Shown: piece by piece, positions 14,612 through 30,956 of the stretch
Position numbering within the stretch: the stretch's first letter is position 1
Layout: every line of letters starts with the position of its first letter
Source: Desulfobotulus alkaliphilus
GTDB lineage: Bacteria; Desulfobacterota; Desulfobacteria; Desulfobacterales; ASO4-4
DNA length: 37,718 nt
Direction: 5' to 3'
NCBI RefSeq assembly: GCF_007830435.1
Contig: NZ_VLLC01000030.1
Coordinates: 1-37,718, forward strand
Notes under the pieces: generated by a model
What the model saw: the letters and a program-made list of their open reading frames with translations, nothing else
Told to the model about the DNA's origin: nothing
Databases searched by the model: none
Position numbers and translations under genes: made by a program

Positions 14612-15256
14612 GGGGCAGACCTCCCGGATATGGCATAAGGATGTCGGGCATCCTGACTGCTTATAAAAGGAAAAAAAGGGAAACGAACCCGCATAGGGGA
14701 TGTTTCCCGGCAGGGGAATCCGGGATGAATCTGGCCGGATTCCGACTTTACAGCCCGCATCTACCTACCATTTTATGGAGGAAAAAGGCAAGGAGAAGGG
14801 CAGGAGGGATGTACTTAAAATTCTGAATACGGGAAGGGGACGTCCGTAGATGGTTCCCGTGATTTTTTTCTGGAAAAAATGATATTTCCAAGTTATGCTG
14901 AAAGAGGATTTCATGAATAAAAGTTTGGTCTTGTGCTTTTTTTGCGTCAGGTGATGGCATCAGCGTTTCTGCTGCTGTTATGGAGAACTGCAAAGGCGTC
15001 TTTTTTCAAAGGCTGGATGTTTGTAACTGGGCACAAAACACTGTTAGTCATATGGGTCTTGCCTTTGTGAGGTGTCTTTGGTTTCGGGGTCGGGGTTGTG
15101 TATGGTCCGGGCAGGGCAGGGTAATGGTAAAGTAAGAACAGCGAGGTGCACCGGCTTTGAAATGAGAATGGATATCCTGTGGTTGTGGCAGGCTGCTGCC
15201 ATGAATCGCAATCATTAAAATACTGTAACCTTACGTCTTGAGACAAGGAGATGCGT
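14612..15256. other. Divergent 645-bp intergenic region upstream of the T6SS locus
   Basis: No supported gene. A very short frame at about 14913-14954 with AGAGGA upstream encodes 13 residues that look like the start of a signal peptide, and is probably debris. A small inverted repeat TGGCAG-GCTG-CTGCCA (15186-15201) lies about 55 bp before tssB and may be an operator. No convincing sigma-70 promoter for tssB or for the DUF3683 gene could be fixed by eye. Confidence 0.4.
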
Positions 15257-15787
15257 ATGGCAATTCAGGATGAAATTCCCAAGTCACGCCTGACACTCAG
15301 GTACAGAACGGAAATCAACGGGCAGCCCGAGGATGTGCAGTTGCCACTAAGGCTGCTGGTCACAGGGGATTATTCCCTGGGCAGTTCCAAGGACCGCAAG
15401 GTGGACCTTGATGAACGTCAGCTCCGGAACATGGATGGCAGAAACACCGATGCTGTCATGAAGGATATGGGTGTGAAGCTGAGCTTTACGGTTCCCAACC
15501 GCATTGATCCGGAGAAAGAAGAGGATATGCAGGTGGAAATTCCCATTGAAGGTATGCGGGGCTTTTCCCCTGAGCAGGTAGCCCAGAAAATTCCAAGGGT
15601 CAAAGGGCTTTTGACCCTGAAGAGCCTGCTTGAGGAGGTGAATTCCAACATTGATAACCGCAAGGAATTCAGAAGGCTTCTCAGTGATCTTGTCAGCAAT
15701 CCGGATGCCCTTTCCAAAATGCAGGAGGAGCTGAAGGCCTTTGACAGCTTTAAGCTTCCCGACAATTCTTCCACACCTGCGGGTTAA
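15257..15787 (+). CDS. tssB: TssB, T6SS contractile sheath small subunit (VipA/IglA)
   Basis: 176 residues. The start at 15257 is preferred over 15251 because AAGGAG occupies 15245-15250 and would abut the earlier ATG. The sequence has TssB features: SRLTLRYRT near the N-terminus, LPLRLLVTGDYSLG, the VDLDERQLRNMD stretch and an acidic/basic C-terminal helix after RVKGLLTLKSLLEEV. TssB pairs with TssC (next gene, 98 bp downstream) to form the cytoplasmic sheath that contracts to fire the Hcp tube. It is the first gene of the T6SS locus. Confidence 0.92.
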   Translation: MAIQDEIPKSRLTLRYRTEINGQPEDVQLPLRLLVTGDYSLGSSKDRKVDLDERQLRNMDGRNTDAVMKDMGVKLSFTVPNRIDPEKEEDMQVEIPIEGMRGFSPEQVAQKIPRVKGLLTLKSLLEEVNSNIDNRKEFRRLLSDLVSNPDALSKMQEELKAFDSFKLPDNSSTPAG

Positions 15788-15885: not shown

Positions 15886-17394
15886 ATGGCGGATGAAACT
15901 TTGCAGGAAGTTAAAACCGAAGAGCAGACCGAGGCCCTGGATCTGAAGCGTTTTCTTTCCAGTATGCGCCTCAGTACAGAGGTGAGTGAGCCTGTACCCA
16001 TGGTACAGGACGGCCTTGCCACGGTTCAGGAGAATGTGAGTGATGAAGACAGGTTTATTTCCGGCCTTGCAGCCCTGCTGATGAATGTGGACCCTGCAAC
16101 GGGTCGTTTTGACAAGGCCATTATTCTGGATCTTATTGCAAAAATCGACAAAATGGTGAACAGCCAGCTCAATGAGATCATTCACCATGAAACCTTTAAG
16201 AAGGTGGAATCGAGCTGGCGCTCCCTCAATGATCTGATCCTGAACACCAATTTCAAAGCCAATGTCATGATCGACATTCTTGACGTGTCCAAGGACGAGC
16301 TTTTTGAGGATTTTGAGTCCAATGCCGTGGACATAACGGGCAGCGCCCTCTTTAAAAAGGTGTATGTGGCAGAATACGATCAGTATGGTGGCAAGCCCTT
16401 TGGAAGCATTGTGGGATTGTACGAGTTCAGTCATACGCCCCAGGATGAGTTCTGGCTGAAAACCATGGGCAAGGTTGCCGCAGCCAGCCATGCACCCTTT
16501 ATCGGTTCCGTATCCCCCCGCTTTTTCGGCTGTGAATCCATAGAGGAACTGGCGGGTATCAAGGATCTTGAAGGTCTCATGAGCCATCCCAAGTACGGAT
16601 CATGGAACAAGCTCAGGGATTCTGAGGAGGCCGCCTACATTGGTCTTACCCTGCCAAGATACATTGCACGGCTTCCCTATGATCCTGTAACCAATCCTAC
16701 GGGCGATCTGATTTTCAGGGAGGAGGTGAAGGGTAACGACAACAAGGACTATGTCTGGGGCAGCAGCGCAGCCCTCTTTGCCCAGAATATGGTCAGATCC
16801 TTTGCCCAGTCTGGCTGGTGTCAGCATATCCGCGGACCCAAGGGGGGCGGACTGGTTTCAGGCCTTCCCGTACATACCTTCAATGTGCGGGGTGAGGATG
16901 AGATCAAGGTACCTGTGGAAATGGTTATTCCTGATTACAGGGAGCTTGAGTTCGCCAATGCCGGTTTCATGCCCCTTGTTTACAGAAAGGGAACGGCGGA
17001 TGCCACCTTCTTCAGTGCCCAGTCCCTTAAAAAAGCCAAGAAATTCAAAGATCCCAAAGACTCGGAAAATGCCCAGCTTGTCACCAACCTTTCCTATACC
17101 TTTTCCATTACCCGCATTGCCCATTATGTGAAATGCATCATGAGGGATAACATCGGCAGCACGGCCGATGCATCCTATATCAAGCAGACCCTTGAAGGCT
17201 GGATTTTTAAATATGTAACAACAGCGGTAAATCCCGACGACCTTACGCTCCGTTATTACCCCTTTAAGGCGGCAGCGGTGGAGGTGGCCCCCAGGGAAGG
17301 TATGATCGGGTGGTACGACTGTGGTATCAGCATTCTTCCCCATATTCAGTTTGAAGGCATGGATGTGGAACTGAGGCTGGATGCAAGGCTTTAG
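15886..17394 (+). CDS. tssC: TssC, T6SS contractile sheath large subunit (VipB/IglB)
   Basis: 502 residues, the usual family length; AAGGAA precedes ATG 15886. Recognisable blocks are the N-terminal helix before VSDEDRFISGLAALL, VESSWRSLNDLI, FKKVYVAEYDQYGGKPFGSIVG, FIGSVSPRFFG, RYIARLPYD, the WCQHIRGPKGGG stretch and the C-terminal sheath core LTLRYYPFKAA followed by GWYDCGISILPHIQFEGMDVEL. It forms the TssB/TssC sheath on the baseplate and is remodelled by ClpV (gene at 28236). Highly confident by motif order and by its position after tssB. Confidence 0.95.
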   Translation: MADETLQEVKTEEQTEALDLKRFLSSMRLSTEVSEPVPMVQDGLATVQENVSDEDRFISGLAALLMNVDPATGRFDKAIILDLIAKIDKMVNSQLNEIIHHETFKKVESSWRSLNDLILNTNFKANVMIDILDVSKDELFEDFESNAVDITGSALFKKVYVAEYDQYGGKPFGSIVGLYEFSHTPQDEFWLKTMGKVAAASHAPFIGSVSPRFFGCESIEELAGIKDLEGLMSHPKYGSWNKLRDSEEAAYIGLTLPRYIARLPYDPVTNPTGDLIFREEVKGNDNKDYVWGSSAALFAQNMVRSFAQSGWCQHIRGPKGGGLVSGLPVHTFNVRGEDEIKVPVEMVIPDYRELEFANAGFMPLVYRKGTADATFFSAQSLKKAKKFKDPKDSENAQLVTNLSYTFSITRIAHYVKCIMRDNIGSTADASYIKQTLEGWIFKYVTTAVNPDDLTLRYYPFKAAAVEVAPREGMIGWYDCGISILPHIQFEGMDVELRLDARL

Positions 17395-17456: not shown

Positions 17457-17783
17457 ATGGCTGAGTCTTCATTCAACTGCAGTGTGTATCAGGGGTTCAA
17501 TTTTCAGAAAGACGGTCAGGAGCTTGTGGGGCATCTGGTATCCCTCACCATCGGCGATGAGGAAATGACAGCGGATATGGATGTAACGGATCCCACATCG
17601 GCGAATATGTCCGAATATGTCAAGGTGGTTGGGGTTATTTCCAAGATTTACTGGAATGGCGGCTATGCGGACCCCATCCAGCTTGCCTTTCAGGTGAGTA
17701 CGGCGGTGAAAAACAAGGTGGCCATGCTCCAGCACCAGAGCCTTTCCAATACGGAAGTGGTGATGAAGTTCAATATTTATGAC
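17457..17783 (+). repeat. Duplicated hcp 5' part, second copy at 37392-37718
   Basis: Aligned without gaps to 37392-37718 with about five substitutions. The two copies flank the gene row from tssK to the ANL-like gene as direct repeats about 20 kb apart, so recombination between them could delete or loop out the T6SS block. Confidence 0.9.
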
Positions 17784-18032
17784 TATGACCCCGATGCCAA
17801 AATGTATTATCTCTGCTTTCATTCCGACGATACGGACCTGAAGGGTCTTATCATGAAGTCCGGCGGGGATCTTGCCATCAACATCGACATGGATCAGTCC
17901 ATGGAGGTGGTAAGCCCCAAGAATTATACCATGAGCCTTGGTGTCATGCCCCAGCCCGAGAGTCAGGACATTCACCTTGCCGTATCCAATACGGATAAGT
18001 TTGTTAAAAAATGGGGCGTTACCGTGGGCTGA
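17457..18032 (+). CDS. hcp: Hcp-like T6SS tube protein (TssD), copy 1
   Basis: 191 residues; AAGGAGG precedes ATG 17457. It occupies the usual Hcp position after tssC, is of suitable size and is rich in beta strands. The sequence (YQGFNFQKDGQELVG, MDVTDPTSANMSEYVKV, VVMKFNIYDYDPDAK) is far from classical Hcp of Pseudomonas or Vibrio. The assignment therefore rests on context, size and the presence of a near-identical second copy at 37392, a common habit of hcp genes. Hcp hexamers stack into the inner tube and also serve as a chaperone and receptor for small effectors. A hairpin follows at 18056, suggesting that transcript level drops after this gene. Confidence 0.75.
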   Translation: MAESSFNCSVYQGFNFQKDGQELVGHLVSLTIGDEEMTADMDVTDPTSANMSEYVKVVGVISKIYWNGGYADPIQLAFQVSTAVKNKVAMLQHQSLSNTEVVMKFNIYDYDPDAKMYYLCFHSDDTDLKGLIMKSGGDLAINIDMDQSMEVVSPKNYTMSLGVMPQPESQDIHLAVSNTDKFVKKWGVTVG

Positions 18033-18143: not shown

Positions 18144-19382
18144 ATGGATAAGCTGGCTCGCATACGCTGGGAAATGGGTCAGACTCTTCTCCCCGGACAT
18201 CTCATTGCCCAGGAAGACGCCCTTGCTGCCGAGTGTGATGCACGGTTCAGAATCCTTGGCCTGCCATCCCATGGTATTGCAAGGCTGCAGCTTAACACCT
18301 CCCTTCTGGCCGAGGGTGTGCTTGCTGTCCAGCATCTCAGTCTTGTCATGCCCTCGGGTATTTTCCTCGACATTCCGGGTAATGCCAGGGCTGAATCCCT
18401 GAACATGAATACCTTTGGCAGGTCCGCTCTTTCCCTTTATCTCCATCTGCTTTCCGCTGATGCGGAAGGAGGTTCAGAACATGGAGAAGATGACAGCGAC
18501 GGTATTCCCCGCAGGCTGCATTCCCTTGTGATTTCAACGGATCAGGCCCGTACGGGGGCTTTGGAAACCATGCGTCTGGGTGTCTTTGTGAGAGACCCTG
18601 AGGGGAAATGGTCCCTTGGAAGCGAGGGCGTGCCGCCTTTGCTTCAGTTGGGTGCTTCTCCTTATTTCAAGGCGGAAACTGCTGAGCTGATACAGATACT
18701 TGAGGTTTTTCAACATAAGCTATCCCAGAATATTTCAGCCAGTTATCTCAGCGGAGACAGCATGTTCAGCGCAAGGGAGTGTCTGAAAAGCGCCCTTCGT
18801 ACCCAGCGCTTTCTTGCCAATATCTCCGGACATATACGGCTGCATCCCTATCATCTTTATGAAATGCTGAAAGATCTTCTTACGGAGGTGGCCTTTTACA
18901 GGAATCTCATGCCCGAACATGTGCTTGAGCCCTATGACCATGAAGATCCTGCGGCCTGTTTCGGTAAAATCATTAACCCCCTTTATGAGCATATCCGGTA
19001 TTTTCAGCGCAGTTCTCCCTATCTTCCCTTTGAAAGCAGAGACGGTCTTCTTCAGCTTGTCTTTCCTGAAGAGGTGAGTCGGGCAAAGGAGGTGTATCTC
19101 CTTGTTCAGAAATCCCAGGTGCAGGAGCGTATCTTTCTGGATAATATTAAAATTACGGCGAAAAGCAGGCTTTCTCTGGTACACAGGCTTGCCCTTCAGG
19201 GGATACCGCTGTCAAGGCTGGAAAGGCCCCCTTTTCAGCATATGTTCGGACCGGAGGTGGATTTTTACCGGCTTCATCCGGGGGATGAATGGGATCAGGC
19301 CATCAAGGATAAGTCGCTGGTGTTCTACGAACCTCCTTCCATGAAGGAGATGAGGTTCTTTCTTTACTGGAGGGAAAACTGA
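18144..19382 (+). CDS. tssK: TssK, T6SS baseplate adaptor
   Basis: 412 residues, ATG 18144 after GAGG. The N-terminus IRWEMGQTLLPGHLIAQED matches the TssK opening pattern (W-x-E-G/M-x-x-L-x-P-x-H-x-x-x-Q-D). The middle and the C-terminal part (RLHPYHLYEMLKDLL, then DGLLQLVF) follow the family's shell-shoulder-neck-head layout. The protein ends FFLYWREN. TssK trimers connect the baseplate wedges (TssE/F/G) to the TssL/TssM membrane complex. It directly precedes tssE with a 3-bp gap, so the two are probably translationally linked. Confidence 0.87.
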   Translation: MDKLARIRWEMGQTLLPGHLIAQEDALAAECDARFRILGLPSHGIARLQLNTSLLAEGVLAVQHLSLVMPSGIFLDIPGNARAESLNMNTFGRSALSLYLHLLSADAEGGSEHGEDDSDGIPRRLHSLVISTDQARTGALETMRLGVFVRDPEGKWSLGSEGVPPLLQLGASPYFKAETAELIQILEVFQHKLSQNISASYLSGDSMFSARECLKSALRTQRFLANISGHIRLHPYHLYEMLKDLLTEVAFYRNLMPEHVLEPYDHEDPAACFGKIINPLYEHIRYFQRSSPYLPFESRDGLLQLVFPEEVSRAKEVYLLVQKSQVQERIFLDNIKITAKSRLSLVHRLALQGIPLSRLERPPFQHMFGPEVDFYRLHPGDEWDQAIKDKSLVFYEPPSMKEMRFFLYWREN

Positions 19383-19385
19383 AAT

Positions 19386-19769
19386 ATGGCATTGTTCAGA
19401 AAGTTTTCACGGGCTCCGGGCAGTCTGAGTGAAGAGCAGAAAGAAATTAACGATATTATTGAGCACCTGAATGCCATCCTGAATACCAAAAAACACTATG
19501 GATCTCCCCTTGGGAATCTGGGTATGGAAGATTTGAGTCATTACCGGTCAAAGGCTGCCATAGGCCGCATCATTATGGAAGAAATCAGGTACAATATAGA
19601 AAACTTTGAGCCAAGGCTTGAGATTGTAAGCATAGAGCATCTGGAAAAAGAAACTCCCATGCATCTTTTTTTCCGCCTTAGGTGCAGACTCCTTGGAAAA
19701 TCCCAGGAGATGGAAGTGGTTTTTGATTCCGCAAGCAGTTTTTTCAGGCTGAATCAGGCAGGCAGATAA
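19386..19769 (+). CDS. tssE: TssE, gp25-like T6SS baseplate wedge protein
   Basis: 127 residues. It carries the gp25/IraD-type core: HLNAILNTKKHYGSPLGNLGMEDL, where the Gly-Ser-Pro-Leu-x-x-Leu-Gly block is diagnostic, then an IRYNIENFEPRL stretch that matches the conserved I-x-x-Y/F-E-P-R-L motif of the family, and a C-terminal strand with FRLRCRLLG. The protein seeds sheath assembly at the baseplate. It begins 3 bp after the tssK stop and relies on a GGAGGG within the end of tssK. Confidence 0.88.
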   Translation: MALFRKFSRAPGSLSEEQKEINDIIEHLNAILNTKKHYGSPLGNLGMEDLSHYRSKAAIGRIIMEEIRYNIENFEPRLEIVSIEHLEKETPMHLFFRLRCRLLGKSQEMEVVFDSASSFFRLNQAGR

Positions 19770-19828: not shown

Positions 19829-21454
19829 ATGTTTACTGATGCATTGTCAATCGGTCTGAAGCTGAATTTATCAGGTAAGGAGGTCTCTGTTCCTGCGGGC
19901 AATATCAAGTCTCTGGAGCTGGATCTTTATTCATGGGGTTACAGGGGAAGGGCTGTTTTTATGGTTTCCCTTGAAAAGGAGCAGGATGAGGTATTTGATG
20001 CCTTTACCGGGAAAAAGCTGATTACCCTTGATATTTCCATCAAGCCCCATTTTATCCCCAAAGGCATCACCGTTGCCCCCCTTTGCGTCAAGGCCCTTGT
20101 GACGGCAAAATCCCTTTTGCGGGAGCAGACCATAGAAGGCGGAGCTCTTGTAGGAAATCCTGTTGTTTACAGGGTTTATTCCATTGATTTTGCGGATAAG
20201 GCTCAGGTTCTGTGGCCCTTCCACCGGCCCTGCGATCTGATGGTGGATCAAAGCATGAAGGATCTTCTGGAGGCCCATAAAAGTGCTGAAGTGACACTGA
20301 AGTATGAGTGGGAGCTTCTGGATGAGATACACCCCATGCTTTCCCTCGGCCTTGGAGCAGGGGAGGGCAGCTCGCATTTCTATGATTTTATTATCTGGTA
20401 TGTTTCCTTCCATGGCGGTGTTTTTACCTGCAGTGCCAAAGACAGTGCATACACCTTTGCTGCTGAAAAAAAGGCAGACGGAGAGCCTGTATCTCTGAAT
20501 TCAGAAGACATACTTTCCGTTCGGGTGGATTTTCCCCAAACCCAGAGGCATAAGCCCTGTCTGCTTAATGGCTATTCGGAAAACCCTATGAATCAGGATG
20601 TTTCGGAAAATCCCGATGGTGTGTCTGGACTGCGGCGGGATTTCCTTGAGAGATACCCTCTGGCTGCGGATTTTACGGCAAGGCAGGAACTGGAAAAGGA
20701 AAAGTTCAGGATAAGGGAGCATGAATTATTCATCGAGTTTTCAAAATGGCCCATGACACTCCTTGATGCAGGACTTCTTTTCAAACTGAAAGGGTCTCTC
20801 TGGGGGAAAAAGCTTTTTACCGAAGAAAAAACATACAGACTGCGCAGTCTTCATATCCGGGCCATGGCCACGGATCAGAACCCTGTGGCCGATCACAACA
20901 TGACCTTCAACCGCTATGAAACGGCCCTTTCCTGCAGGCTGGAAACCCTTGATGAGGCCTTTGTGGATCTGCCGGATTTCATCCCCCCTGTTTATCCCTT
21001 CCATGTGGAGGGCAAAATAATCAGTGATGAATGGGATGAAGAGGACATCAGCTATGAAATGCATGAGGATGACGATACCTCGGAGCAGCAGTACAGGGTA
21101 AAAATTCCCCTCTGGGATAATCAGGAGGTCAAGGCACCCTATATGCCCCTTGTCCATTCCGGACATTTTTACTTTCCTGTTTATAAGGATGCAAGGGTGC
21201 TTGTGGCCCTTGATTTTCAGAAGGCAGCCATTGTTTCCTGTCTGGACTGGCGGGGGGAGGCAAGGGTGCCCCAGGATACCCAGGGCAACAGGATTTTCAT
21301 GGGCCTGAAGCCGGACAGCCGCACAGCCATCAGCCATACCTATGAAAACAAGCTGCCTGTTTTCACCATGGAGCGGGTGGAGGATAAGGATACGGAGACC
21401 ATCGTTTTTTCAGACGGTAATCTTCTGATTCAGACCTGCGAGAAAAAGGAATAG
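19829..21454 (+). CDS. VgrG-like spike hub lacking the beta-helix (TssI hub, gp27/gp5-OB part)
   Basis: 541 residues; ATG 19829 follows GAGG. Residues about 1-370 fit a gp27-like hub: an N-terminal beta barrel, then a second domain around the stretch DEIHPMLSLGLG...YDFIIWYVSFHGGVFTC, comparable with the VgrG block that ends in an 'EGIYYYF' type strand. Residues about 395-500 fit a gp5-like OB fold (VEGKIISDE, QYRVKIPLWDN, PYMPLVHSGHFYFPVYKDARVLVALDF), the diverged counterpart of the VgrG 'VRFPWD ... PRVGDEVLV' region. The protein stops soon afterwards, where normal VgrG continues into the triple-stranded beta-helix; that part is probably the next gene. An intrinsic terminator follows at once. 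Sequence is strongly diverged, so the call rests on layout and position. Confidence 0.68.
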   Translation: MFTDALSIGLKLNLSGKEVSVPAGNIKSLELDLYSWGYRGRAVFMVSLEKEQDEVFDAFTGKKLITLDISIKPHFIPKGITVAPLCVKALVTAKSLLREQTIEGGALVGNPVVYRVYSIDFADKAQVLWPFHRPCDLMVDQSMKDLLEAHKSAEVTLKYEWELLDEIHPMLSLGLGAGEGSSHFYDFIIWYVSFHGGVFTCSAKDSAYTFAAEKKADGEPVSLNSEDILSVRVDFPQTQRHKPCLLNGYSENPMNQDVSENPDGVSGLRRDFLERYPLAADFTARQELEKEKFRIREHELFIEFSKWPMTLLDAGLLFKLKGSLWGKKLFTEEKTYRLRSLHIRAMATDQNPVADHNMTFNRYETALSCRLETLDEAFVDLPDFIPPVYPFHVEGKIISDEWDEEDISYEMHEDDDTSEQQYRVKIPLWDNQEVKAPYMPLVHSGHFYFPVYKDARVLVALDFQKAAIVSCLDWRGEARVPQDTQGNRIFMGLKPDSRTAISHTYENKLPVFTMERVEDKDTETIVFSDGNLLIQTCEKKE

Positions 21455-21456
21455 GC

Positions 21457-21486
21457 AAAAGCCGGGGATCATACGCCCGGCTTTTT
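21457..21486 (+). terminator. Intrinsic terminator between the hub and spike genes
   Basis: AAAAGCCGGG (21457-21466) pairs perfectly with CCCGGCTTTT (21476-21485) over a 9-base loop, with a run of five T at 21482-21486. It starts 3 bases after the stop of the VgrG-like gene, inside an otherwise tight same-strand gene row. It probably acts as an attenuator for the downstream T6SS genes; the A-run on the left makes it potentially bidirectional. Confidence 0.8.
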
Positions 21487-21536
21487 GACATCCGCTGATC
21501 ATTTTAAACCTTATTTTTACGGGCGAAAGGCAGAAT

Positions 21537-22127
21537 ATGGGAACTCTGGTCTGTCGCATTGAACTGGATAAGCATAAGGGGATCACCGTTACCGTGGAAA
21601 ATGAGGATGGCGGAATCACCCAGACCATATCCATGGATGGCACTTCCATTGTCACCACATGCAAGGGCGATGAGGAAACCAGTACCATCACCCAGAAGCA
21701 GGACAGCATTGCCATAAAATGCAAGACCTTTACCCTTGATGCCGAGGAGATCACCTGCCATTCCACAAAGAATACCACCCATAAAAGCGATGAAAAGTAT
21801 GATGTAAAAAGTACCAAAGATATGACGCTCACCACGGATGCCGCACTGAAGGTCAAGGCTTCCAAAAAAGCGGAACTCAGTGCCCAGAGTGTGGATATCA
21901 AGGCCGATAACAAGGCGTCTTTCTCGGGTATGGATGTTGTTGCAGAAGCGAAGCAGAAGGCGGAGATGAAAGGCCTGATGCTGAATCTTTCCGGCAAGAC
22001 CAAGGCTGAAATGAAAGGGCTGGCCGTGAAGGTCGCAGCGGATGCAGCCCTTGACCTTGAGGGCCAGCTCACAACTCTGAAGGGTTCCATTGTCAATGTA
22101 CAGGGTTCCATGGTTAAGATTGGCTGA
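21537..22127 (+). CDS. Beta-helical spike protein (separate VgrG C-terminal needle-like domain)
   Basis: 196 residues, ATG 21537 after GAAAGG. Residues about 40-196 consist of short alternating strands rich in Lys, Thr, Asp, Ala and Val with roughly eight- to ten-residue periodicity (for example STKDMTLTTDAALKVKAS, KAEMKGLMLNLSGKTKAEMK, VAADAALDLEGQLTTLKGS). This is the signature of the triple-stranded beta-helix at the tip of VgrG/gp5 (DUF2345-like). No signal peptide or membrane segment is present. Immediately downstream of a VgrG-like hub that lacks this part, it is best read as the needle of a split VgrG, extending the hub and carrying the DUF4280 tip encoded at 27797. Alternatively it could be a baseplate spike of phage gpV type. 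Confidence 0.65.
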   Translation: MGTLVCRIELDKHKGITVTVENEDGGITQTISMDGTSIVTTCKGDEETSTITQKQDSIAIKCKTFTLDAEEITCHSTKNTTHKSDEKYDVKSTKDMTLTTDAALKVKASKKAELSAQSVDIKADNKASFSGMDVVAEAKQKAEMKGLMLNLSGKTKAEMKGLAVKVAADAALDLEGQLTTLKGSIVNVQGSMVKIG

Positions 22128-22141
22128 TATTATCGGGGGAA

Positions 22142-23797
22142 ATGATGCGCATGGACGAAAGAATGTACAAAGCCTTTCAGGAGGAAATGAATGCCCTTGA
22201 GAGTTTCCGTATCTCCTATGCGGCATTGTATCCATCTGTTCCTCTGGAGCGGAACGATCCCGATGTGAAGCGGCTCATGGAGGCCATGGCCTTTTTTGGC
22301 GCAAGGTCAAGGCTTGCGGCGGAACGCCATGTGCTGGCCCTGAGACAGAGGCTTTTTCATCAGTTTTTTGATTACCTTGTTTCTCCTGTGCCTGCCATGG
22401 CCCTTCTTCAGGCCAGACCCTCATCCCAGCTTGTGGATCCAGTGAGCATTCCCGCAGGCTCGGAGTTTCTCATGACGGTGCCGGATGGCAGGCAGGCTTT
22501 TTTCAGGCTTGTTACGGGCCTAAGACTTTTTCCCCTTGCAGTGAAAAGCGTCAGTACCCTGCTGGGGGCAGGCCGGGGTTTTCGTATTCTTCTGCGTCTG
22601 GCTTCGCCCTTTGCACGCCGTGATGACAAATGGACCCTGAACATGCACATCACCCATCTGAATGATTTCAGGGATTCTCTTAAGCTGCTGCACACCATAA
22701 AACAGCATCTGAAGCAGGCTTCCGTGGTTTATGAGGATGACGTGGACGAAAACAGCAAAGGTCTTCCCTGTACCTTGACATTTGGCATGCAGCCGCTGGC
22801 TGAGGGAGAGGAAGGGGCCGAGCTGATTACCCATCCTCTGGAAAGGGAAAGGCTGGCTTTTACCCTTCCCCAGCAGGATCTTTTCATGAATGTAGAGCTG
22901 CCCCCTTCTCCGGATGCCTGGAAGCGGCTGACCATATGTCTGGATATGGATGATGGCTGGCCCAGAAATACGGTGCTGCATCCGGATATGTTTCAGCTTT
23001 TTGTTGCTCCCGTGGTGAACCTTAAAAAGGATTTTACCCATCCCCTCTTCTGTGAGGGGCTGAGGGAACGCTATGATCTTTTCCATCCCAGACCAGAGTA
23101 CGGGTTTGCCCTGCATTCGGTAAAGGGGGTGTATGAGGTGAGCAAGGAAGGCCTTTTTCCCCTGATGCCGGGTATTGTATCCGGGAGCAGCGGTTCCTAC
23201 GAGATGGATTATGCATCAGGCGGGTCAGGGGGGGCTGTCAACGGGCTGATCCTTAATTATCCGGAGGCCTTTGACGGTGGCAGGCAGATTGCCGTGGAAG
23301 GTCTCTGGCATCAGCCCTGGATTTCGCGTTTTATGGGCCAGAAGCTCAGTATTGTTCCCTTTACCAGACAGATTCCAGGGGTTCGCTGGGACTGGGCCGG
23401 GGCAGGGCGGGGTTTTATGGAAAATACCTTTCTTCAGCATGAAGACGGTGTGCTGCAGCTTGTGGCACTGATGAACAAGACCATACTGAACGTGGAGGAT
23501 ATCCGTCTGATTCTTGCGGCTTCAGGAATAGACAGGATACCTGAGTACAGGGAAGCCATGGGGCTGCTGGAGGATGCACGCTGTCAGCATGCCCCCTGCA
23601 GAAAACCCTCAGGGAACACGGTCCTCAAAGAGGTGTATTCCCTTGGTTTCCGCGACGTGGGCGAAGCTGTCATGCCCTTGCTGGAGAATTTCGGGCGCCA
23701 TGTGCAGCGCATTCTCAATGCCTGGGTGGCGGATACGCCTGTGGAGGTGGAAATGGAATCAGGCCTGACTCCCGTCAGGAGGGGAAAAACCGCATGA
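22142..23797 (+). CDS. tssF: TssF, T6SS baseplate wedge protein
   Basis: 551 residues. The N-terminus has the TssF/VasA pattern: NALESFRISYAALYPSVPL, then DPDVKRLMEAMAFFGARSRL, HQFFDYLVSPVPAMALLQ and PVSIPAGSEF. These correspond to the family's 'DPDVERLLEGFAFL' and 'L-x-P-x-P-S' motifs. The C-terminal part is diverged. TssF forms the wedge with TssG and TssE. Several ATGs are possible (22142, 22145, 22151); GGGGG at 22135-22139 favours 22142 or 22145. The stop overlaps the tssL start by ATGA, so tssF and tssL are translationally coupled. Confidence 0.88.
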   Translation: MMRMDERMYKAFQEEMNALESFRISYAALYPSVPLERNDPDVKRLMEAMAFFGARSRLAAERHVLALRQRLFHQFFDYLVSPVPAMALLQARPSSQLVDPVSIPAGSEFLMTVPDGRQAFFRLVTGLRLFPLAVKSVSTLLGAGRGFRILLRLASPFARRDDKWTLNMHITHLNDFRDSLKLLHTIKQHLKQASVVYEDDVDENSKGLPCTLTFGMQPLAEGEEGAELITHPLERERLAFTLPQQDLFMNVELPPSPDAWKRLTICLDMDDGWPRNTVLHPDMFQLFVAPVVNLKKDFTHPLFCEGLRERYDLFHPRPEYGFALHSVKGVYEVSKEGLFPLMPGIVSGSSGSYEMDYASGGSGGAVNGLILNYPEAFDGGRQIAVEGLWHQPWISRFMGQKLSIVPFTRQIPGVRWDWAGAGRGFMENTFLQHEDGVLQLVALMNKTILNVEDIRLILAASGIDRIPEYREAMGLLEDARCQHAPCRKPSGNTVLKEVYSLGFRDVGEAVMPLLENFGRHVQRILNAWVADTPVEVEMESGLTPVRRGKTA

Positions 23798-24510
23798 ATA
23801 AAAGTTTATGGGCTGAAATATATAAGGTTTTCAGGACAAGGGACAGGGTTTTTTCTCCATTCAGGGCTTCTGTGGGGGAAGGGGGAGAGAGCTTTGCTTC
23901 AGAAAAGGAAAACGATCCTGAAAGGTCAGGACTTTATACCCGTATCCGGGAACCCGGTCCCGATGATCTTGTGCAGGCAAGGTCTGCAATCCGTGAAGCC
24001 CTTGAAAATTTGAGGGAGGCCCTTTCCAGGGAGCTTATGGAAAGGGATGTGTATTATCTCCTTTTTCCCATTGTGGCCCATCTCGATGAAGGGGTTCAGA
24101 CCCGCTACATGGATCCTGCCATATCCGGAGGCTGGCCGCCTCTGCAGAGGGAGCTTTTTGATACGGATGCGGCGGGTGTGGTTTTCTACGAGACCCTGGA
24201 GGATCTTCTGCTGAAACCTCAGACCCTGCCTGCGATTTTTGAGGTGTATTATTTCTGTCTGAGTGATGGCTTCAATGGCCGTATGGTGAACAATCCGTCG
24301 AAAAGACAGGAGTTTATGGAAAGGCTCACCAACCGTATTCCTGTGCCGGAGATGTCTGAATTGTCACATGTCTGGGAAAGGGAGCTGACTCCGGTTGCAG
24401 AAGACAGGATTTCCCCCTTTTGGCTTTATGGGGGGGCTCTTTCCTGTCTGATTCTTTTTTATTTTATCCTGAGTTATCTGGGCTCTTACTGGATGGAGAT
24501 GAATTTTTAA
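23794..24510 (+). CDS. tssL: TssL, DotU/IcmH-like inner-membrane T6SS protein
   Basis: 238 residues; ATG overlaps the tssF stop (ATGA). The cytoplasmic DotU-type domain shows the paired helices around VQARSAIREALENLREAL, the YYLLFPIVAHLDEGVQ block (the conserved 'A-x-x-D-E' helix) and LLKPQTLPAIFEVYYFCLSDGFNG, equivalent to the family's 'LE-x-Y-x-C-L-x-L-GF-x-G' motif. A single C-terminal membrane segment (about 206-230, FWLYGGALSCLILFYFILSY) anchors it with almost no periplasmic tail, so there is no peptidoglycan-binding (OmpA) domain. It joins TssM and TssJ in the envelope complex and contacts TssK. Confidence 0.9.
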   Translation: MNKSLWAEIYKVFRTRDRVFSPFRASVGEGGESFASEKENDPERSGLYTRIREPGPDDLVQARSAIREALENLREALSRELMERDVYYLLFPIVAHLDEGVQTRYMDPAISGGWPPLQRELFDTDAAGVVFYETLEDLLLKPQTLPAIFEVYYFCLSDGFNGRMVNNPSKRQEFMERLTNRIPVPEMSELSHVWERELTPVAEDRISPFWLYGGALSCLILFYFILSYLGSYWMEMNF

Positions 24511-25008: not shown

Positions 25009-25866
25009 ATGGCTTCTTTTGAGGGTAGAATCCGTAAGAGAATCCGGGACTGCGATGCCCTGTCTCTCATGCGTCTTCTCATGCACCATGGCTATAAAAT
25101 GGATCAGATTTTTTTCCTTGGACATCCGGACTCCTGTTCAAGGGAAACCCTGTTTGAAGACATCCGGTTTTTTCAAAAACCCTATTCCCATGTACTGATT
25201 TCCGTGAATATGGGGCTTTTGTCCGCCCAGAGTCCCCTTCCCAGTTATTTTTTCAAAAGAATGGAGTCCCACACCCTTGATGCGCTGAGCTTTATTCAGT
25301 TTATTCATTACTTTGATCATTTTCTCCTGCTGAATTTTTTCAGGAGTGTTTATCCTGAGTCGGATACAAGAATTTACAGTGATTATCAAAAAGGTCAGCG
25401 CAGCACCCTGCAGATGCTTTCCCTTCGCTCCCCGGTCACCCTCCACTGGGTGATGGATGCGGTTTTTCCTGAACTTACTGTCCATGTCAGGAAGGGGACT
25501 TTAAAGCATCATGCCCGCCTGAACGCCAGTGCCTTTATCCTCGGAACGGCTGTTTTTGGTCGCAATGCAGTGCTTGGGGGCAGCTTACGTCAGCCAGCAA
25601 GGGGCCTCCGGGTGGAGATGTTCACGGACAGTGAAACGGCACCCTGCGGTCTTCCCTGGATGCAGGTAATCAAGGGGCGTCTTGAGAAAATTGTGTTTCC
25701 TGTTCTGGGGGCTGTGGGAGTGGAGCTTGAAATCTTTCTTGTGCTGTCAGGCAAAAGAAATCCGGTTCAGCTCAGATCCGGTGCTTCCCTTGGTTATGAT
25801 GTCATAGAGGGTGGCGATTCAAAGCACCGTATTCTGCCGGTTTTTTCAGGCTGTGTTCTTGAGTAG
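25009..25866 (+). CDS. tssG: TssG, T6SS baseplate wedge protein
   Basis: 285 residues, ATG 25009 after GAGGG; somewhat shorter than the usual 300-370. Family features in order: DIRFFQKPYSHVLISVNMGLLSAQSPLPSYF, corresponding to the 'LGLxGxxGPLPxxY' block; then FIQFIHYFDHFLLLNFFRS, corresponding to the 'F-L-D-x-F-x-H-R' helix; and a second-half region with TAVFGRNAVLGGSLRQPARG, corresponding to 'G-x-x-V-x-x-x-x-x-x-F-R'. The match is pattern-level only, but tssF, tssE and tssK are present in the same row and no other gene here could be TssG. Confidence 0.75.
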   Translation: MASFEGRIRKRIRDCDALSLMRLLMHHGYKMDQIFFLGHPDSCSRETLFEDIRFFQKPYSHVLISVNMGLLSAQSPLPSYFFKRMESHTLDALSFIQFIHYFDHFLLLNFFRSVYPESDTRIYSDYQKGQRSTLQMLSLRSPVTLHWVMDAVFPELTVHVRKGTLKHHARLNASAFILGTAVFGRNAVLGGSLRQPARGLRVEMFTDSETAPCGLPWMQVIKGRLEKIVFPVLGAVGVELEIFLVLSGKRNPVQLRSGASLGYDVIEGGDSKHRILPVFSGCVLE

Positions 25867-25932
25867 TCTTGTTTTTTGCATCCATAGGAAAGTCCACCGT
25901 GCTTTTTTAATCATCAGTCAGGGATGGGATCA

Positions 25933-26898
25933 ATGAATATTGAATACCTGAGAAGAGAGCTGTCACCCAGTGAAAAACCAGGCCTTGACATTACGGATCC
26001 AAGGCTTGTGGACATTGCCACCCTCGCCCAGAACGGTGAGTACATGGCAGCGGCAGTGGCCGTTGAGGGGGTTTTTGAAGAAGGGATTTATGATGTAAGG
26101 CTTATGGGTTTTTTCCTTTACGGCCTTTTTCTTGAAGGTGGGGTGCGGGGGCTGAAAGAAGTCTTTTCTGCCCTTTCCTTTTTTCTGGAAACAAACTGGA
26201 ACTATACGGGACCGGAAAAGAAGCGGGAAAAGCACGGACAGGTGGGGCTGGGCTGGTTTTTTAACCAGCTTCTGAAAAAACTTCAGCATGAAGAGGCCTC
26301 AAAGGGAGGAATCTGGCAGCAGTGGCTGCAGGAAACCCATTCGGATGATGCGGGAGATGCCCTGGAAGCGGCTTCCGATCTCAGGCGGGTCATGTCTCAG
26401 GTCCTTGAAGATGCAGCAGAGCCTCTGCTGGACGGGCTTTTAAAAATATCCGACTGGCTCAGGGCTTTCCAGAGGCTGGTTTACAGTGAGGAGGCTGTAG
26501 CAGAGGAGACCCCGGAGGAAACAGAGGCGTCAGAAGAAGAAAAGCAGGAGAAAACGGCAGCCTCTGGCGGGGCTGGCTCCCGTACCCCGTGCGGGGAAGG
26601 GCTTCTGGTTGAGGGGTCCGTTCATCTGGAGCTGCTCATGAAAAAGCTTCAAATTTTTGAGCAGCTCATGGAAAGGGAAATGTATCCCAGGGCGGCCCTT
26701 GTGGCCGATGATATCATGCAGACCATAGAAAATTTTGACCCAAGGCTTTATTTTCCTAAGCTTTTCAGTCGTTTTTTTATGCTTCTGGCATTGCGCAGTG
26801 AGGATGTCATGCAGTTTGAGGAAATGAAGGAAAGTCCGGAATGGCAGGCCATGCGGGAGTTTTTCAAGGTGGATCCCGATGCCTTTGTGGATTTCTGA
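25933..26898 (+). CDS. tssA: TssA-like (ImpA_N/VasJ-type) T6SS protein
   Basis: About 321 residues. The start at 25933 gives GGGATGGG a usable ribosome-site spacing; the ATG at 25924 also remains possible. The N-terminal region (GLDITDPRLVDIATLAQNGEY, then GIYDVRLMGFFLYGLFLEGGVRGLKEVF and LETNWNYTGPEKK) follows the ImpA_N pattern, where a slow-to-fast helix pair ends in 'G-L-x-x-x-L-x-L-x-x-x-x-W-x-x-x-x-P'. An acidic linker (about 195-220, Glu/Lys-rich) leads to a C-terminal domain of VasJ type ending EFFKVDPDAFVDF, where 'L-x-x-x-D-P-x-x-A' is usual. TssA primes or caps sheath and tube polymerisation. Divergent; symbol assigned on layout. Confidence 0.65.
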   Translation: MNIEYLRRELSPSEKPGLDITDPRLVDIATLAQNGEYMAAAVAVEGVFEEGIYDVRLMGFFLYGLFLEGGVRGLKEVFSALSFFLETNWNYTGPEKKREKHGQVGLGWFFNQLLKKLQHEEASKGGIWQQWLQETHSDDAGDALEAASDLRRVMSQVLEDAAEPLLDGLLKISDWLRAFQRLVYSEEAVAEETPEETEASEEEKQEKTAASGGAGSRTPCGEGLLVEGSVHLELLMKKLQIFEQLMEREMYPRAALVADDIMQTIENFDPRLYFPKLFSRFFMLLALRSEDVMQFEEMKESPEWQAMREFFKVDPDAFVDF

Positions 26899-26979
26899 TC
26901 CCTGTTGAATAAGGCTTTCTGTTTATACCTGCAGGTCGCTGGCGGATTGAAGAGCAAACTGAAATGTAAAGGGGGGGCT

Positions 26980-27723
26980 GTGAAATGTAAAGGGTGTGGC
27001 ATTGAGTCGCTTTCAGATGAGGGCATGACCATGGTAGCAGACTGGCCCTTTTGTTCCCCCTGCTTTGAAAAACTGCTGACGGGCGGAGACAGGGCTGTCA
27101 GTGCAAGGGATACGGAGGAAAGTGCCGGAGCCAGCCAGGAAGCTCAGGAAGTCCATGGGGGGGCTGGGGATAAAAAGGTGCCGGGCTGTGAACTCTGCGG
27201 TGCTCCCCTGGGTGAGGATGACTGCAGGGTGGGCATATGGAAGTTCTGCAGGATCTGTTTTCAGGATCTTGTCATGGCACCATCTCCGCCCCGGCCTGTC
27301 CAGGGAGAGGATTCAGAAGAAGCGGAAGAAGACGGGGGGAGCAGGGAAGACGCATTTTTCGTTCCGGATCACATGAAAAGTGTTCTCTGTGCAGGCTGTG
27401 GACGGAGCATTCCCCTTGGTGGTGCAAAGCCTGTGGAGGAAAAATGCTATTGTCCGGACTGTTTTCTTTTGCTTCCGCCAGAAAGAGCAATCCAGGGGCC
27501 TGCTTTGGCGCAGAAAGATGAACGCTCTTCCCATGGTACATCTTCAGCCTCTGAAACGGAAGTATGTGAGGCATGCCTGCGCAGGCTGCCCCTGAGAAGA
27601 CTTCAGGAGGTGCAGGGCTTTGAGATCTGCTCCGCCTGCCTTGCAACGGATGAGGCCATGGCCCTTGAACTGGCCCGCAGCCACCACAGAAAGCGTATGG
27701 AGGCAGAAAGGCGTCAGGTTTGA
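26980..27723 (+). CDS. Four-module zinc-finger protein, T6SS-linked, unknown
   Basis: About 247 residues from GTG 26980, chosen because seven G (26971-26977) lie just upstream. The frame stays open upstream to TTG codons at 26947 and 26905. Four similar modules each have CxxC, about 20 residues, then CxxC: CKGC...CSPC, CELC...CRIC, CAGC...CPDC and CEAC...CSAC. They are LIM/zinc-ribbon-like tetracysteine zinc sites. Modules are joined by Glu/Ser/Gly-rich linkers. There is no signal peptide, and the C-terminus is basic and helical. It precedes the DUF4280 tip gene by 73 bp, so it may be an adaptor for tip or cargo loading, or itself cargo. No named family is recognised. Confidence 0.7.
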   Translation: MKCKGCGIESLSDEGMTMVADWPFCSPCFEKLLTGGDRAVSARDTEESAGASQEAQEVHGGAGDKKVPGCELCGAPLGEDDCRVGIWKFCRICFQDLVMAPSPPRPVQGEDSEEAEEDGGSREDAFFVPDHMKSVLCAGCGRSIPLGGAKPVEEKCYCPDCFLLLPPERAIQGPALAQKDERSSHGTSSASETEVCEACLRRLPLRRLQEVQGFEICSACLATDEAMALELARSHHRKRMEAERRQV

Positions 27724-28235: not shown

Positions 28236-30956
28236 ATGATCATTGACCGCTTTAATCTCAAGTCCCAGGAGCTGATTGAAAAGGCCTGCCGTCTGGCTGT
28301 GAAGAAGGAGCATCAGTGTGTGACCCCATGGCATCTTCTTTCAAGCCTTCTGGAAGTTCCCCGAAGTCCTGTCCGTTCGGCCCTGACGGATGCAGGAACC
28401 CGTATGGAGGCCTTGGAAGCAAGGATATCCGGTCATCTTCTTACCCTTCCCAAGGCCCTTGCAGATGCCCAGCAGACCCCCATCAACCGGGATCTGGAAA
28501 GACTTTTCATTCTGGCCGAAGAAACGGCAACCCAGCTTGGGGAATCTGCCATCGGTATTCACCATTTGCTGCTGGCCATGCTGGATGTGGGAGAACCTGC
28601 GGCTGCACTGACTGAATCCGGTACAGATAAAGAAAAGCTGGGAACAGCGCTGAAGGCCATGCGGTCATCTGCCTCTGAAAAGGGTGGAGGAACAGGCCTT
28701 TCGCAGGAATTTGAATATCTGGCAAAATACACAAGGGACCTTACGGAAACGGCCCGCAGGGGCGAGCTGGATCCTGTGATCGGCAGGGATGAGGAGATCC
28801 GTCTGACCATTCAGATTTTAAGCCGCCGCCTTAAGAATAATCCCATTATCATCGGCGAGCCGGGGGTGGGTAAAACCGCTGTGGTGGAAGGGCTGGCCCT
28901 TCGCATTGTAAAGGGTGATGTCCCAGACAGTCTCAAAGATATTTCCATTCTGGCTCTGGATCTGGGACAGCTCATTGCCGGGGCAAAGTTCAGGGGGGAG
29001 TTTGAAGAACGATTCAAGCGGGTGCTGGAGGAAATCGAGGCCGCAGGAAATGTGATCACCTTCATTGATGAAATTCATATGCTGGTGGGGGCAGGGGCTT
29101 CCGGAGGTGCCATGGATGCGGCCAACCTCATCAAGCCAGCCCTTTCCAGGGGAAAAATCCGCTGCATCGGTGCCACAACCCTGGAAGAATACCGCAAGCA
29201 TATTGAAAAGGATGCCGCACTCATGCGCCGGTTCCAGACCGTTACCGTGGATGAGCCTTCCATGGAGCAGAGTCTGGCCATTTTAAGGGGGATCAAGGAA
29301 AAGTACGAGACTCACCATGGCGTTCATATTACGGATGCGGCCCTTCAGTCGGCCGTGAAGCTTGCCAAACGCTACATCACAGACCGTTTTCTTCCGGACA
29401 AGGCCATCGACCTTGTGGATCAGTCAGCGGCCAGCCTGCGCATCGCCCTTGCTTCGAGGCCCGAAGACATGGAGCGGATGGCAAGGGAGATTGTGGCCCT
29501 TGAAATAGAAGTCAGGGCCCTGGAAGGGGAGACGGACAAGGCCAGTGCAGAGCGTCTGGAGGTGGCAGGGGCTGAACTTGCAGCCCTTAAGGAGGAAAGT
29601 GAAAAAAGGGTGGCTGCATGGGAAGAGGAGAAAAAAGCCCTGCTTGCGGTGCAGGATGCAGGAAGAAGCCTTGAAGCCGCCAGAAAGGAACTTGAGCAGA
29701 AAATCCGCGAGGAGGATTTCGCAAGGGTTGCCGAGCTTCAGTACAAGGTGATTCCTGAGGCGGAAAAGGTACTGGAACAGTATCAGGGCCTGAATACTGA
29801 AAATCAGACTGGAGAGGTGAGCAGAAGGGATCTTCTCCCTGAGGATGTGGCAGTCTGTGTTTCCCGCTGGACCGGGGTTCCCGTGTCAAAGATGATGGCA
29901 GAAGAAAAGGATCGCTGGCTTAAGCTGGAAACCCATCTGCGAAACAGGGTTGCCGGTCAGGATGAAGCCCTTGGAACCGTAGCCAGAGCCGTGCGCCGTT
30001 CCAGGGCAGGGGTGCAGGATCCCAACCGCCCCGTGGCCTCCTTTCTCATGCTCGGACCTACGGGTGTGGGCAAGACGGAGCTTGCCAAGGCCCTTGCAGA
30101 GTTTCTCTTTGATGATGAAAAATCCCTGATACGCATTGATATGAGTGAGTTCATGGAAAAGCACTCTGTGGCCCGCCTTACGGGAGCGCCTCCCGGTTAT
30201 GTGGGATATGATGAGGGCGGGGTGCTGACCAACAAGGTAAAAAGAAAACCCTACAGCGTTGTTCTTTTTGACGAGGTAGAAAAGGCCCATCCCGATGTTT
30301 ACAATATTTTCCTTCAGGTATTTGACGACGGAAGGCTTACGGACGGGCAGGGCCGGACCACCCACTTCTACGACACCGTTCTTCTCATGACCTCAAACCT
30401 TGGAGCCGACCGCATCGAGGCCGCAGAGACGGAAGAAGACGTTTTAAAGATGAAGCGGGCCATTATGGAAGTGGTGCAGGGCTTTTTCAGGCCGGAATTC
30501 CTCAACCGTCTGGATGATATCATCATTTTCCGTCCCCTCACGCCGGAGGTCATGAATCCCATCGTGGATATTCAGCTCATGCGCCTTTCAAAACTCCTTG
30601 GGGACAGGAAAATCAAACTGGAAGTGGATGCAGAGGCAAGGGAGTTTCTGGCTGCAGAGGGGTACAACCCCCTTTACGGTGCAAGGCCCCTGAAGCGGGT
30701 TATACAGACAAGGCTTCAGGACCCCCTTGCTGAAATGCTCATTGAGGATGGGATGGAAGAGGGGGGCGAAATTCTTGTATCCGTCAGGGACAATACCTTA
30801 AATATAAGCAGGGCAGGGGAGGATGGCAGGCCTTTGTTCCCGGAGGGTGAACAGGAAGGATCTGAAACGGTTTCTGAAGCTGCACCTTTCCCTCCCTCTG
30901 AATCCCATGGTGAAGAAGATGATGAAGATGGTGAAGGGCATGGGAATAACCATTGA
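28236..30956 (+). CDS. clpV: ClpV (TssH), T6SS sheath-recycling AAA+ ATPase
   Basis: 906 residues. The N-terminal Clp-N repeat domain occupies about 1-150. The first AAA+ domain has Walker A GEPGVGKT at about 207-214 and Walker [10 protein letters not shown] shortened Clp middle region with coiled coil lies at about 410-530. The second AAA+ domain has GPTGVGKT at about 607-614 and [13 protein letters not shown], and the ClpB D2-small domain ends near 850. The N-terminus and the position inside the T6SS row identify it as ClpV rather than ClpB. An acidic tail of about 45 residues (Glu/Asp/Gly-rich, ending HGNNH) extends the usual C-terminus. It extracts TssC from contracted sheaths to recycle them. 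Confidence 0.93.

What the first reader, a model, noticed from the sequence alone, without database searches (positions are those of the whole stretch)
19829..22127. VgrG split into separate hub and beta-helical needle genes
A 541-residue hub (gp27-like plus an OB fold) ends where VgrG normally enters its beta-helix. The following gene encodes 196 residues with beta-helix-type repeat spacing and no other fold. Together they would equal one VgrG. If correct, needle and hub assemble from two polypeptides, allowing separate dosage or exchange of needles. That canonical VgrG fuses gp27/gp5 parts is established; the split is read from sequence; the assembly is inference.
Basis: partly seen in the sequence, partly recalled or inferred. 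Interest (0 to 1): 0.8.

Follow-up and report, generated by a model that had tools for sequence, protein, structure and literature searches.

The report
Two-piece T6SS spike outside Francisella
This sulfate-reducer-type bacterium appears to build the tip of its type VI secretion harpoon from two separate genes, a hub and a needle, an arrangement known from Francisella and here found in related clusters of environmental bacteria.

Summary
The window carries a type VI secretion (T6SS) cluster of the order that includes Desulfobacter. The VgrG role is split between a 541-aa hub (19829-21454) and a 196-aa needle (21537-22127). The hub model's best Foldseek match in the PDB is Francisella PdpA of the PdpA-VgrG spike (E 1.6e-17); gp44, gp27 and VgrG hubs also match. 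The needle family profile matches Francisella VgrG (E 1e-5) and the needle end of other VgrGs. No canonical VgrG was found in the genome. The split is not decay: in samples of 389 genomes of the order, the same 14 have hub and needle. None of 18 full-length hubs carries a needle. In 17 of 17 places the needle precedes TssF, whereas only 7 of 18 hubs abut it. Split spikes are already known from Francisella T6SSii, described in print as Francisella-only. New here is the spread to Desulfobacterota and a planctomycete, in clusters mixing Francisella-like parts (IglI, IglE) with a canonical TssK, and a hub lacking PdpA's first ~170 residues. Assembly, separate dosage and needle exchange are unproven.

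The parts
19829..21454 (+). Hub protein, 541 aa: gp27-like trimer-hub domain (about 1-377), then a probable OB/neck region; PdpA-like without PdpA's N-terminal ~170 residues
   Evidence: Foldseek top 6u9g/6u9e/6u9f PdpA E 1.6e-17 to 1.2e-16; VIA Z 18.6-18.8, model 2/5-538 vs PdpA 172/179-817
21537..22127 (+). Needle protein, 196 aa: VgrG beta-helix part alone
   Evidence: NF041249 TssI_Fran 25 bits E 1.5e-5, below its cut-off of 100; family profile vs PDB: 6u9e_B VgrG 1e-5, 8gra_I VgrG 490-613 1.1e-5
21457..21485 (+). GC-rich hairpin (10-pair stem, 9-base loop) ending in a T run between hub and needle genes; possible attenuator (speculative)
   Evidence: fold of 21448-21520: z -2.83, 1 of 200 shuffles as good; not in the terminator scan, whose loop limit is 8; not general at other junctions
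15251..15787 (+). TssB, small sheath subunit
   Evidence: TIGR03358 147 bits > 97; nearest solved chain Francisella IglA, 90.8 bits vs 69.7 next
15886..17394 (+). TssC, large sheath subunit
   Evidence: TIGR03355 515 bits > 271; nearest solved chain Francisella IglB, 414 bits vs 385 next
17457..18032 (+). Probable tube protein (Hcp/IglC role), by position only
   Evidence: no meaningful family or PDB match; conserved between TssC and TssK in most relatives mapped
18144..19382 (+). TssK, canonical type
   Evidence: TIGR03353 336.8 bits > 100; nearest solved chains are named TssK
19386..19769 (+). TssE (gp25-like)
   Evidence: TIGR03357 59.2 > 53.2 bits; PF04965
22142..23797 (+). TssF
   Evidence: PF05947 80.9 bits > 25; NF041246 IglH/TssF 35.5 bits, below cut-off 75
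23794..24510 (+). TssL/DotU
   Evidence: PF09850 75.4 bits > 27
25009..25866 (+). TssG
   Evidence: PF06996 18.6 bits, below cut-off 24.6; conserved in relatives
25924..26898 (+). IglI-family protein
   Evidence: NF041244 317 bits > 100
26905..27723 (+). Conserved Cys-rich (zinc-ribbon-like) protein, directly before the hub in several clusters where the hub has moved
   Evidence: weak TraR/DksA zinc-finger match, below cut-off
28236..30956 (+). ClpB-like sheath-recycling ATPase (role inferred)
   Evidence: ClpB TIGR03346 1146.8 bits vs ClpV TIGR03345 795.9; both below their cut-offs
31012..34596 (+). TssM/IcmF
   Evidence: TIGR03348 56.4 bits, below cut-off 388; conserved in relatives
34583..35122 (+). 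IglE/TssJ-type lipoprotein (start codon inferred)
   Evidence: PF22361 IglE_N 109.6 bits > 26; NF041245 37.8 bits, below cut-off 75

Best explanation
Shown from sequence and predicted fold: the cluster has, in place of VgrG, two proteins, a gp27-like hub whose best fold match is PdpA and a short protein matching VgrG needles. Inferred: three hubs form the ring that adapts the 6-fold tube and baseplate to 3-fold symmetry and end in a beta neck. Three needle chains assemble as a trimeric beta-helix, dock on this neck through their conserved N-terminal strands (MGTLVCRIEL...), and are fired with the tube, as PdpA and VgrG are in Francisella. The split is an old, stable trait of a T6SS lineage in Desulfobacterota and at least one planctomycete (Uabimicrobium), not a broken VgrG. 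Because the needle stays before TssF while the hub gene lies elsewhere in many clusters, the two parts are independent genetic units.
For: Hub fold: Foldseek's top three matches are PdpA in the PdpA-VgrG complex, then eCIS spikes, VgrS, VgrG, gp44, gp27; VIA Z 15-19 to these. Needle: family profile E 1e-5 to Francisella VgrG and 1.1e-5 to VgrG residues 490-613; TssI_Fran E 1.5e-5. Co-occurrence: the same 14 of 389 genomes have hub and needle. 16 of 16 hub genomes searched have a type-A needle (5 of these genomes gave no row to the query alignment), and the sister species G001, in which no hub was found, has none. 0 of 18 full-length hubs carry a needle; in 17 of 17 places the type-A needle is followed by TssF as the next recognised gene (gaps up to 256 nt); 7 of 18 hubs abut the needle. 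No canonical VgrG in the own genome. Francisella-type company: IglI 317 bits, IglE_N 109.6 bits, sheath nearest IglA/IglB among solved chains, ClpB-like ATPase.
Against: No significant sequence-level match of the hub to Pfam, NCBIfam or PDB, and hub vs VgrG profile alignment is not significant. The hub model is of moderate quality (mean pLDDT 59, residues 376-457 below 50), so the OB fold is not shown. The needle model fails from residue 78 on and its Foldseek matches are weak. Trimerisation and hub-needle contact were not tested. VIA ranks a cyanophage baseplate protein (8kea_A, Z 19.3) level with PdpA (18.8). TssK is canonical, unlike Francisella's IglD. Searches list only 34 of 389 genomes each; that both drew the same sample is assumed from the identical listed rows.
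Confidence: 0.87

Rival explanations
1. A single VgrG gene recently broken by a frameshift or stop, now a pseudogene pair.
For: Together the two products equal one VgrG in length and order; 82 nt separate them.
Against: Hub and needle are separate in all 16 genomes with both, in relatives whose hubs are 29-42% identical, and often far apart or on different contigs. The needle has its own conserved start (MGTLVC), and 15 of 18 hubs end at a similar point while 3 have a longer helical-looking tail.
Confidence: 0.02
2. The needle is not the spike but a cargo or cap; the hub's own C-terminal strands form a minimal spike.
For: The hub ends in several predicted strands (483-538, block pLDDT 48-71); three hubs have extra C-terminal tails.
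Against: Needle profile matches the needle end of VgrGs of several systems and Francisella VgrG; same position before TssF in 17 of 17; co-occurrence with the hub.
Confidence: 0.07
3. Hub and needle are interchangeable modules: one hub is loaded with different needles, or alternative hubs share a needle.
For: G026 and G753 have one detected hub but two needle types, type B next to a PAAR gene; G732 has two hubs and one detected needle. In G026 the main cluster contig held no hub in the 19.9 of 24.1 kb examined.
Against: Hub and type-A needle trees broadly follow the cluster genes. Not every hub candidate was scored (3 of 8 in G026, 3 of 4 in G753), so a further hub is possible (one search scored 2 of 2 in G026 and saw one). 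Type B is only weakly related to type A (17.8-20.8 bits) and its function is unknown.
Confidence: 0.25

Closest known systems
Francisella T6SSii central spike, PdpA + short VgrG (PDB 6u9e/6u9f/6u9g)
   Same: Hub and needle are two proteins; the hub model's best Foldseek match is PdpA; the needle profile's best PDB match is the 6u9e VgrG; IglI, IglE and ClpB-type partners.
   Different: Hub is 541 aa and aligns to PdpA from residue ~172 on, so PdpA's N-terminal part is missing; needle below the TssI_Fran cut-off; TssK is canonical; ATPase inside the cluster; different phyla.
Canonical T6SSi VgrG (TIGR03361)
   Same: gp27-like hub fold and beta-helix needle in one spike.
   Different: Canonical VgrG is one polypeptide; no TIGR03361 match in this genome.
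Phage hub/spike pairs: T4 gp27/gp5, Mu gp44/gp45, P2 gpD/gpV (pairings of Mu and P2 recalled)
   Same: Separate hub gene; gp44 and gp27 are structural matches of the hub.
   Different: In phages the OB fold travels with the needle (gp5: PMC5924787; others recalled); here the hub aligns through to the neck region and the needle is needle only. No phage record of the collection matches the hub.
eCIS spikes (Pvc8, AFP, Anabaena, Algoriphagus)
   Same: High structural matches for the hub and weak ones for the needle.
   Different: Hub and needle are in one chain there (both match 7aef_q, 6j0m_A, 7b5h_AJ); this cluster has TssL/M-type membrane parts.
Split vgrG loci in Acinetobacter (PMC6838775, one passage read)
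   Same: Separate N- and C-terminal VgrG domains are reported.
   Different: Reported for some strains of one genus; here the split is the rule of a lineage.

Membership tests
VgrG/gp27-gp5 central spike | gp27-like hub fold | tested here: met
   PdpA, VgrG, gp44, gp27 at Z 15-19 over model ~3-377
VgrG/gp27-gp5 central spike | OB fold after the hub domain | tested here: inconclusive
   hub 376-457 pLDDT <50; alignments to PdpA and VgrS extend to 538-541
VgrG/gp27-gp5 central spike | beta-helix needle | tested here: met
   by sequence profile, E 1e-5 to VgrG needles, and family period 6.9-7.8; the fold model itself failed
VgrG/gp27-gp5 central spike | trimer | not testable with these tools
   no complex prediction on hand
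Canonical VgrG (TssI, T6SSi) | hub and needle in one polypeptide, TIGR03361 | tested here: not met
   genome; proteins
Francisella-type split spike (PdpA + VgrG) | separate hub and needle genes | tested here: met
   0 of 18 full-length hubs fused to a needle
Francisella-type split spike (PdpA + VgrG) | hub has the PdpA fold | tested here: met
   Foldseek top 3; VIA level with 8kea_A but covering 359-383 vs 277 residues, rmsd 18-20 A over the whole chain
Francisella-type split spike (PdpA + VgrG) | N-terminal ~170-residue part of PdpA (bears the lid, recalled) | tested here: not met
   the hub starts where PdpA residue ~172 aligns
Francisella-type split spike (PdpA + VgrG) | needle above TssI_Fran cut-off (100 bits) | tested here: not met
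   25 bits; of 3 relatives scanned, 22.8 and 21.2 bits and one no hit
T6SSii subtype | IglI family protein | tested here: met
   317 bits > 100; 3 of 3 relatives scanned 187-325 bits
T6SSii subtype | IglE lipoprotein | tested here: met
   PF22361 109.6 > 26; but NF041245 37.8 < 75, and 3 relatives 51.5-60.4, also below
T6SSii subtype | divergent IglD instead of canonical TssK | tested here: not met
   TIGR03353 336.8 > 100; nearest solved chains named TssK
T6SSii subtype | common ancestry with Francisella clusters in a tree | not tested
   no Francisella sequences were fetched; only solved-chain scores

The most novel reading that the evidence does not exclude
These clusters are a deep environmental branch related to Francisella's T6SSii, with the split spike in a minimal form without the PdpA N-terminal part. 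In some members one hub is served by two needle types, so spike tips are swapped without changing the hub.
Probability: 0.25. Interest if true: 0.72.

Novelty: new variant of a known kind. Interest (0 to 1): 0.5.

Why it matters
T6SSii has been described as restricted to Francisella (PMC4793230, abstract and passages) and 'in a class by itself' (PMC9600919, passages). A Francisella-type two-part spike with IglI- and IglE-like partners in environmental anaerobes gives that outlier relatives, and a source of non-pathogen proteins for structural work. It also offers a natural setting to test whether a T6SS hub can take more than one needle.

Tried and rejected
Frameshift or pseudogene reading: rejected (16 genomes keep two genes). 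Full VgrG elsewhere: no TIGR03361 match in the own genome; PF05954 and PF04717 were not searched genome-wide. PAAR tip: PF13665 none; PF05488 only two sub-threshold matches at 14.0 and 13.3 bits; DUF4280 was not searched in the own genome. Hub in the phage, plasmid and viral-contig collections: none. The first genome-contig scan with the single hub found nothing; the alignment scan found 7. A phylum sample of 395 genomes gave only the own genome with profile A1, so the lineage is rare. The IglI survey of the phylum gave matches in 16 of 297 genomes, only the own one over the cut-off; the rest are weak (TssA-like by my reading) and were not followed. hhalign hub vs VgrG is not significant; needle vs VgrG gives 66.6% probability on 25 columns only. 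Single-needle Pfam scan: DUF2345 at 14.2 bits, below cut-off. The needle fold model is poor and its Foldseek matches are weak (7b5h E 0.048, 6u9e_B 0.65). That a hairpin sets dosage was left as speculation: one strong inverted repeat at another junction (L025), none at L027 or L057; the other adjacent junctions were not folded. The planctomycete survey was not done (one search failed). Literature: ten searches. No title or abstract start that I saw describes a Desulfobacterota or Planctomycetota T6SSii-like split spike. Searches matched 743 and 861 papers, of which only 12 each were listed, and most listed papers were not opened. One that was (PMC3608642, passages) mentions T6SS machinery in a Desulfovibrio without VgrG or Francisella. 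This is no proof of absence. Yang et al. 2019 (the PdpA-VgrG structure paper, recalled) is not held; its lid is recalled.

Full report
Observation. Both ORFs are present at the stated coordinates. They lie in a T6SS gene row: TssB, TssC, a probable tube protein, TssK, TssE, hub, needle, TssF, TssL, TssG, an IglI-family protein, a Cys-rich protein, a ClpB-like ATPase, TssM and an IglE-type lipoprotein. The genome is assigned to the order of Desulfobacter and Desulfoluna by inference: contigs of genomes labelled 'same order' have the same lengths as four named records (26,570, 57,713, 40,403 and 57,645 bases).

Hub. No significant Pfam, NCBIfam or PDB sequence match. A model from 8 sequences, its own included (mean pLDDT 59, pTM 0.55), has Francisella PdpA of the PdpA-VgrG complex as its top three Foldseek matches (E 1.6e-17 to 1.2e-16). 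Then follow eCIS spikes, Salmonella VgrS, and phage gp44 and gp27. VIA-align gives Z 18.6-18.8 to PdpA over 359-383 residues, model 2/5-538 against PdpA 172/179-817. It gives 19.3 to cyanophage 8kea_A over 277 residues, which counts as a tie. The rmsd of 18-20 A over the full chain shows that the domain arrangement in the model is not reliable. The gp27-like domain is well supported; the OB fold is not shown.

Needle. Single-sequence evidence is weak: TssI_Fran 25 bits against a cut-off of 100, DUF2345 14.2 bits, and 6u9e VgrG E 0.42. A 12-sequence profile reaches 6u9e_B at 1e-5, 8gra_I VgrG (residues 490-613) at 1.1e-5 and further VgrG/eCIS needle ends. The long VgrG and eCIS chains are hit only from about residue 464-520 on, and the hub aligns up to about residue 490-600 of such chains. 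The break therefore falls around the neck of the spike.

Is the split real and stable? In 389 genomes of the order, 14 have the hub and 14 have the needle, and they are the same 14. Each call lists only 34 of its genomes; that both used one sample is assumed from the identical listed rows. If so, the other 375 have neither at these thresholds. Two more hub genomes, Syntrophus (L026) and the planctomycete Candidatus Uabimicrobium amorphum (L028; lineage), came; both have a needle. In these 16 genomes I count 18 full-length hubs and 17 type-A needles. One further hub (L030) is cut by a contig end and its genome was left out of the counts. Needle hits of the 12 query members are expected by construction; G002, G026, G646, G731 and G753 gave no row to the query. 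None of the 18 hubs carries a needle: 15 end near a QTKEE-like tail (some deviate), and 3 (L031, L051, L052; 643-650 aa) carry a longer tail that looks coiled-coil by eye, with a weak, sub-threshold Apolipoprotein match in L031. In 17 of 17 places TssF is the next recognised gene after the type-A needle, with gaps up to 256 nt. Seven hubs lie directly before the needle: the window, G002, L025/G527, L026, L027/G499 and two in G590. The other 11 lie elsewhere: next to the IglI/Cys-rich genes, on the other strand, in an island, or on another contig. Genes of a second, weakly related needle type (B, 128-130 aa) stand beside a PAAR gene in G026 (L031) and G753 (L058); the L058 one matches DUF2345 at 23.2 bits, below the cut-off of 30.7.

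The hub is gp27-like. No canonical VgrG was found in the 98%-complete genome, although 37 of 146 sampled genomes of the order have a match. Of the hub genomes whose rows I saw in that call, G499 has a canonical VgrG on another contig, while G000, G002 and G026 have none. Trimerisation could not be tested.

Mechanism. By analogy with PdpA-VgrG (PMC5924787, section 14 and 15 passages read: PdpA co-immunoprecipitates with VgrG and looks like a cap on the VgrG needle; IglC, PdpA and VgrG depend on each other for secretion), hub and needle should form one spike that caps the tube. This is inference. Dosage: an 82-nt spacer with a hairpin (z -2.83) separates the genes here, but the consensus scan found terminator-like sites no more often than in shuffles and does not include this one, and the hairpin is not general. 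Exchange: gene counts of one detected hub and two needle types (G026, G753) or two hubs and one detected needle (G732) leave it open. Tree distances: over all 12 clusters the hub correlates with TssF/TssK/TssC at r 0.87/0.74/0.78 and the needle at 0.79/0.71/0.78 (TssK in 10 and TssC in 9 of the 12). Without L028 and L059 these become 0.92/0.87/0.91 and 0.70/0.59/0.71, and hub-needle is 0.82 (0.76 over all). The lower needle values of the subset may be noise of a short, simple sequence.

Relation to known systems. T6SSii was reported only in Francisella (PMC4793230, abstract and passages; PMC9600919, passages). The present clusters share IglI (317 bits), IglE_N (109.6 bits), sheath proteins nearest to IglA/IglB among solved chains, a ClpB-like ATPase and the split spike. 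They differ in a canonical TssK, a cluster-encoded ATPase, and a hub without PdpA's first ~170 residues. I therefore call them T6SSii-like and do not file them as T6SSii. A split vgrG is also mentioned for some Acinetobacter strains (PMC6838775, one passage).

Verdict. Real, and a good catch from raw sequence; the kind of split is already known, and its occurrence, distribution and minimal form are the new part.

Noticed in passing
L028:4004-6574 (-): In Candidatus Uabimicrobium amorphum the two sheath subunits TssB and TssC are fused in one 855-aa ORF.
   Followed up: no
window 35170-36945: 591-aa protein with a weak, partial, sub-threshold AMP-binding (acyl-CoA synthetase-like) match. It follows TssM and the lipoprotein gene here, and in many relatives lies between TssM and TssB; role in the T6SS unknown.
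   Followed up: no
window 26905-27723: Cys-rich zinc-ribbon-like protein conserved in these clusters, directly before the hub in several of those where the hub has moved.
   Followed up: partly
L031:7780-9983 and L058:13861-15737: Cassette of short type-B needle, PAAR protein and methyltransferase-like protein; PAAR and methyltransferase also in L055 and L056.
   Followed up: partly
L031, L051, L052: Three hubs carry a ~100-residue C-terminal tail that looks coiled-coil; beside two of them (L031/L022 and L052) lies a gene for a long protein with sub-threshold Apolipoprotein-type helical matches.
   Followed up: no
L049:8485-8871 (-): A DUF4280 protein (PAAR-like, by recall) lies next to the hub of Desulfobacter vibrioformis.
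   Followed up: no
L024:17651-18226: Second copy of the probable tube protein in the sister species G002, 99.5% identical to its first copy.
   Followed up: partly
L025:11618-11743: Strong inverted repeat (about 26-bp arms, z -7.0) between hub and needle genes in a Desulfobacteraceae MAG.
   Followed up: no
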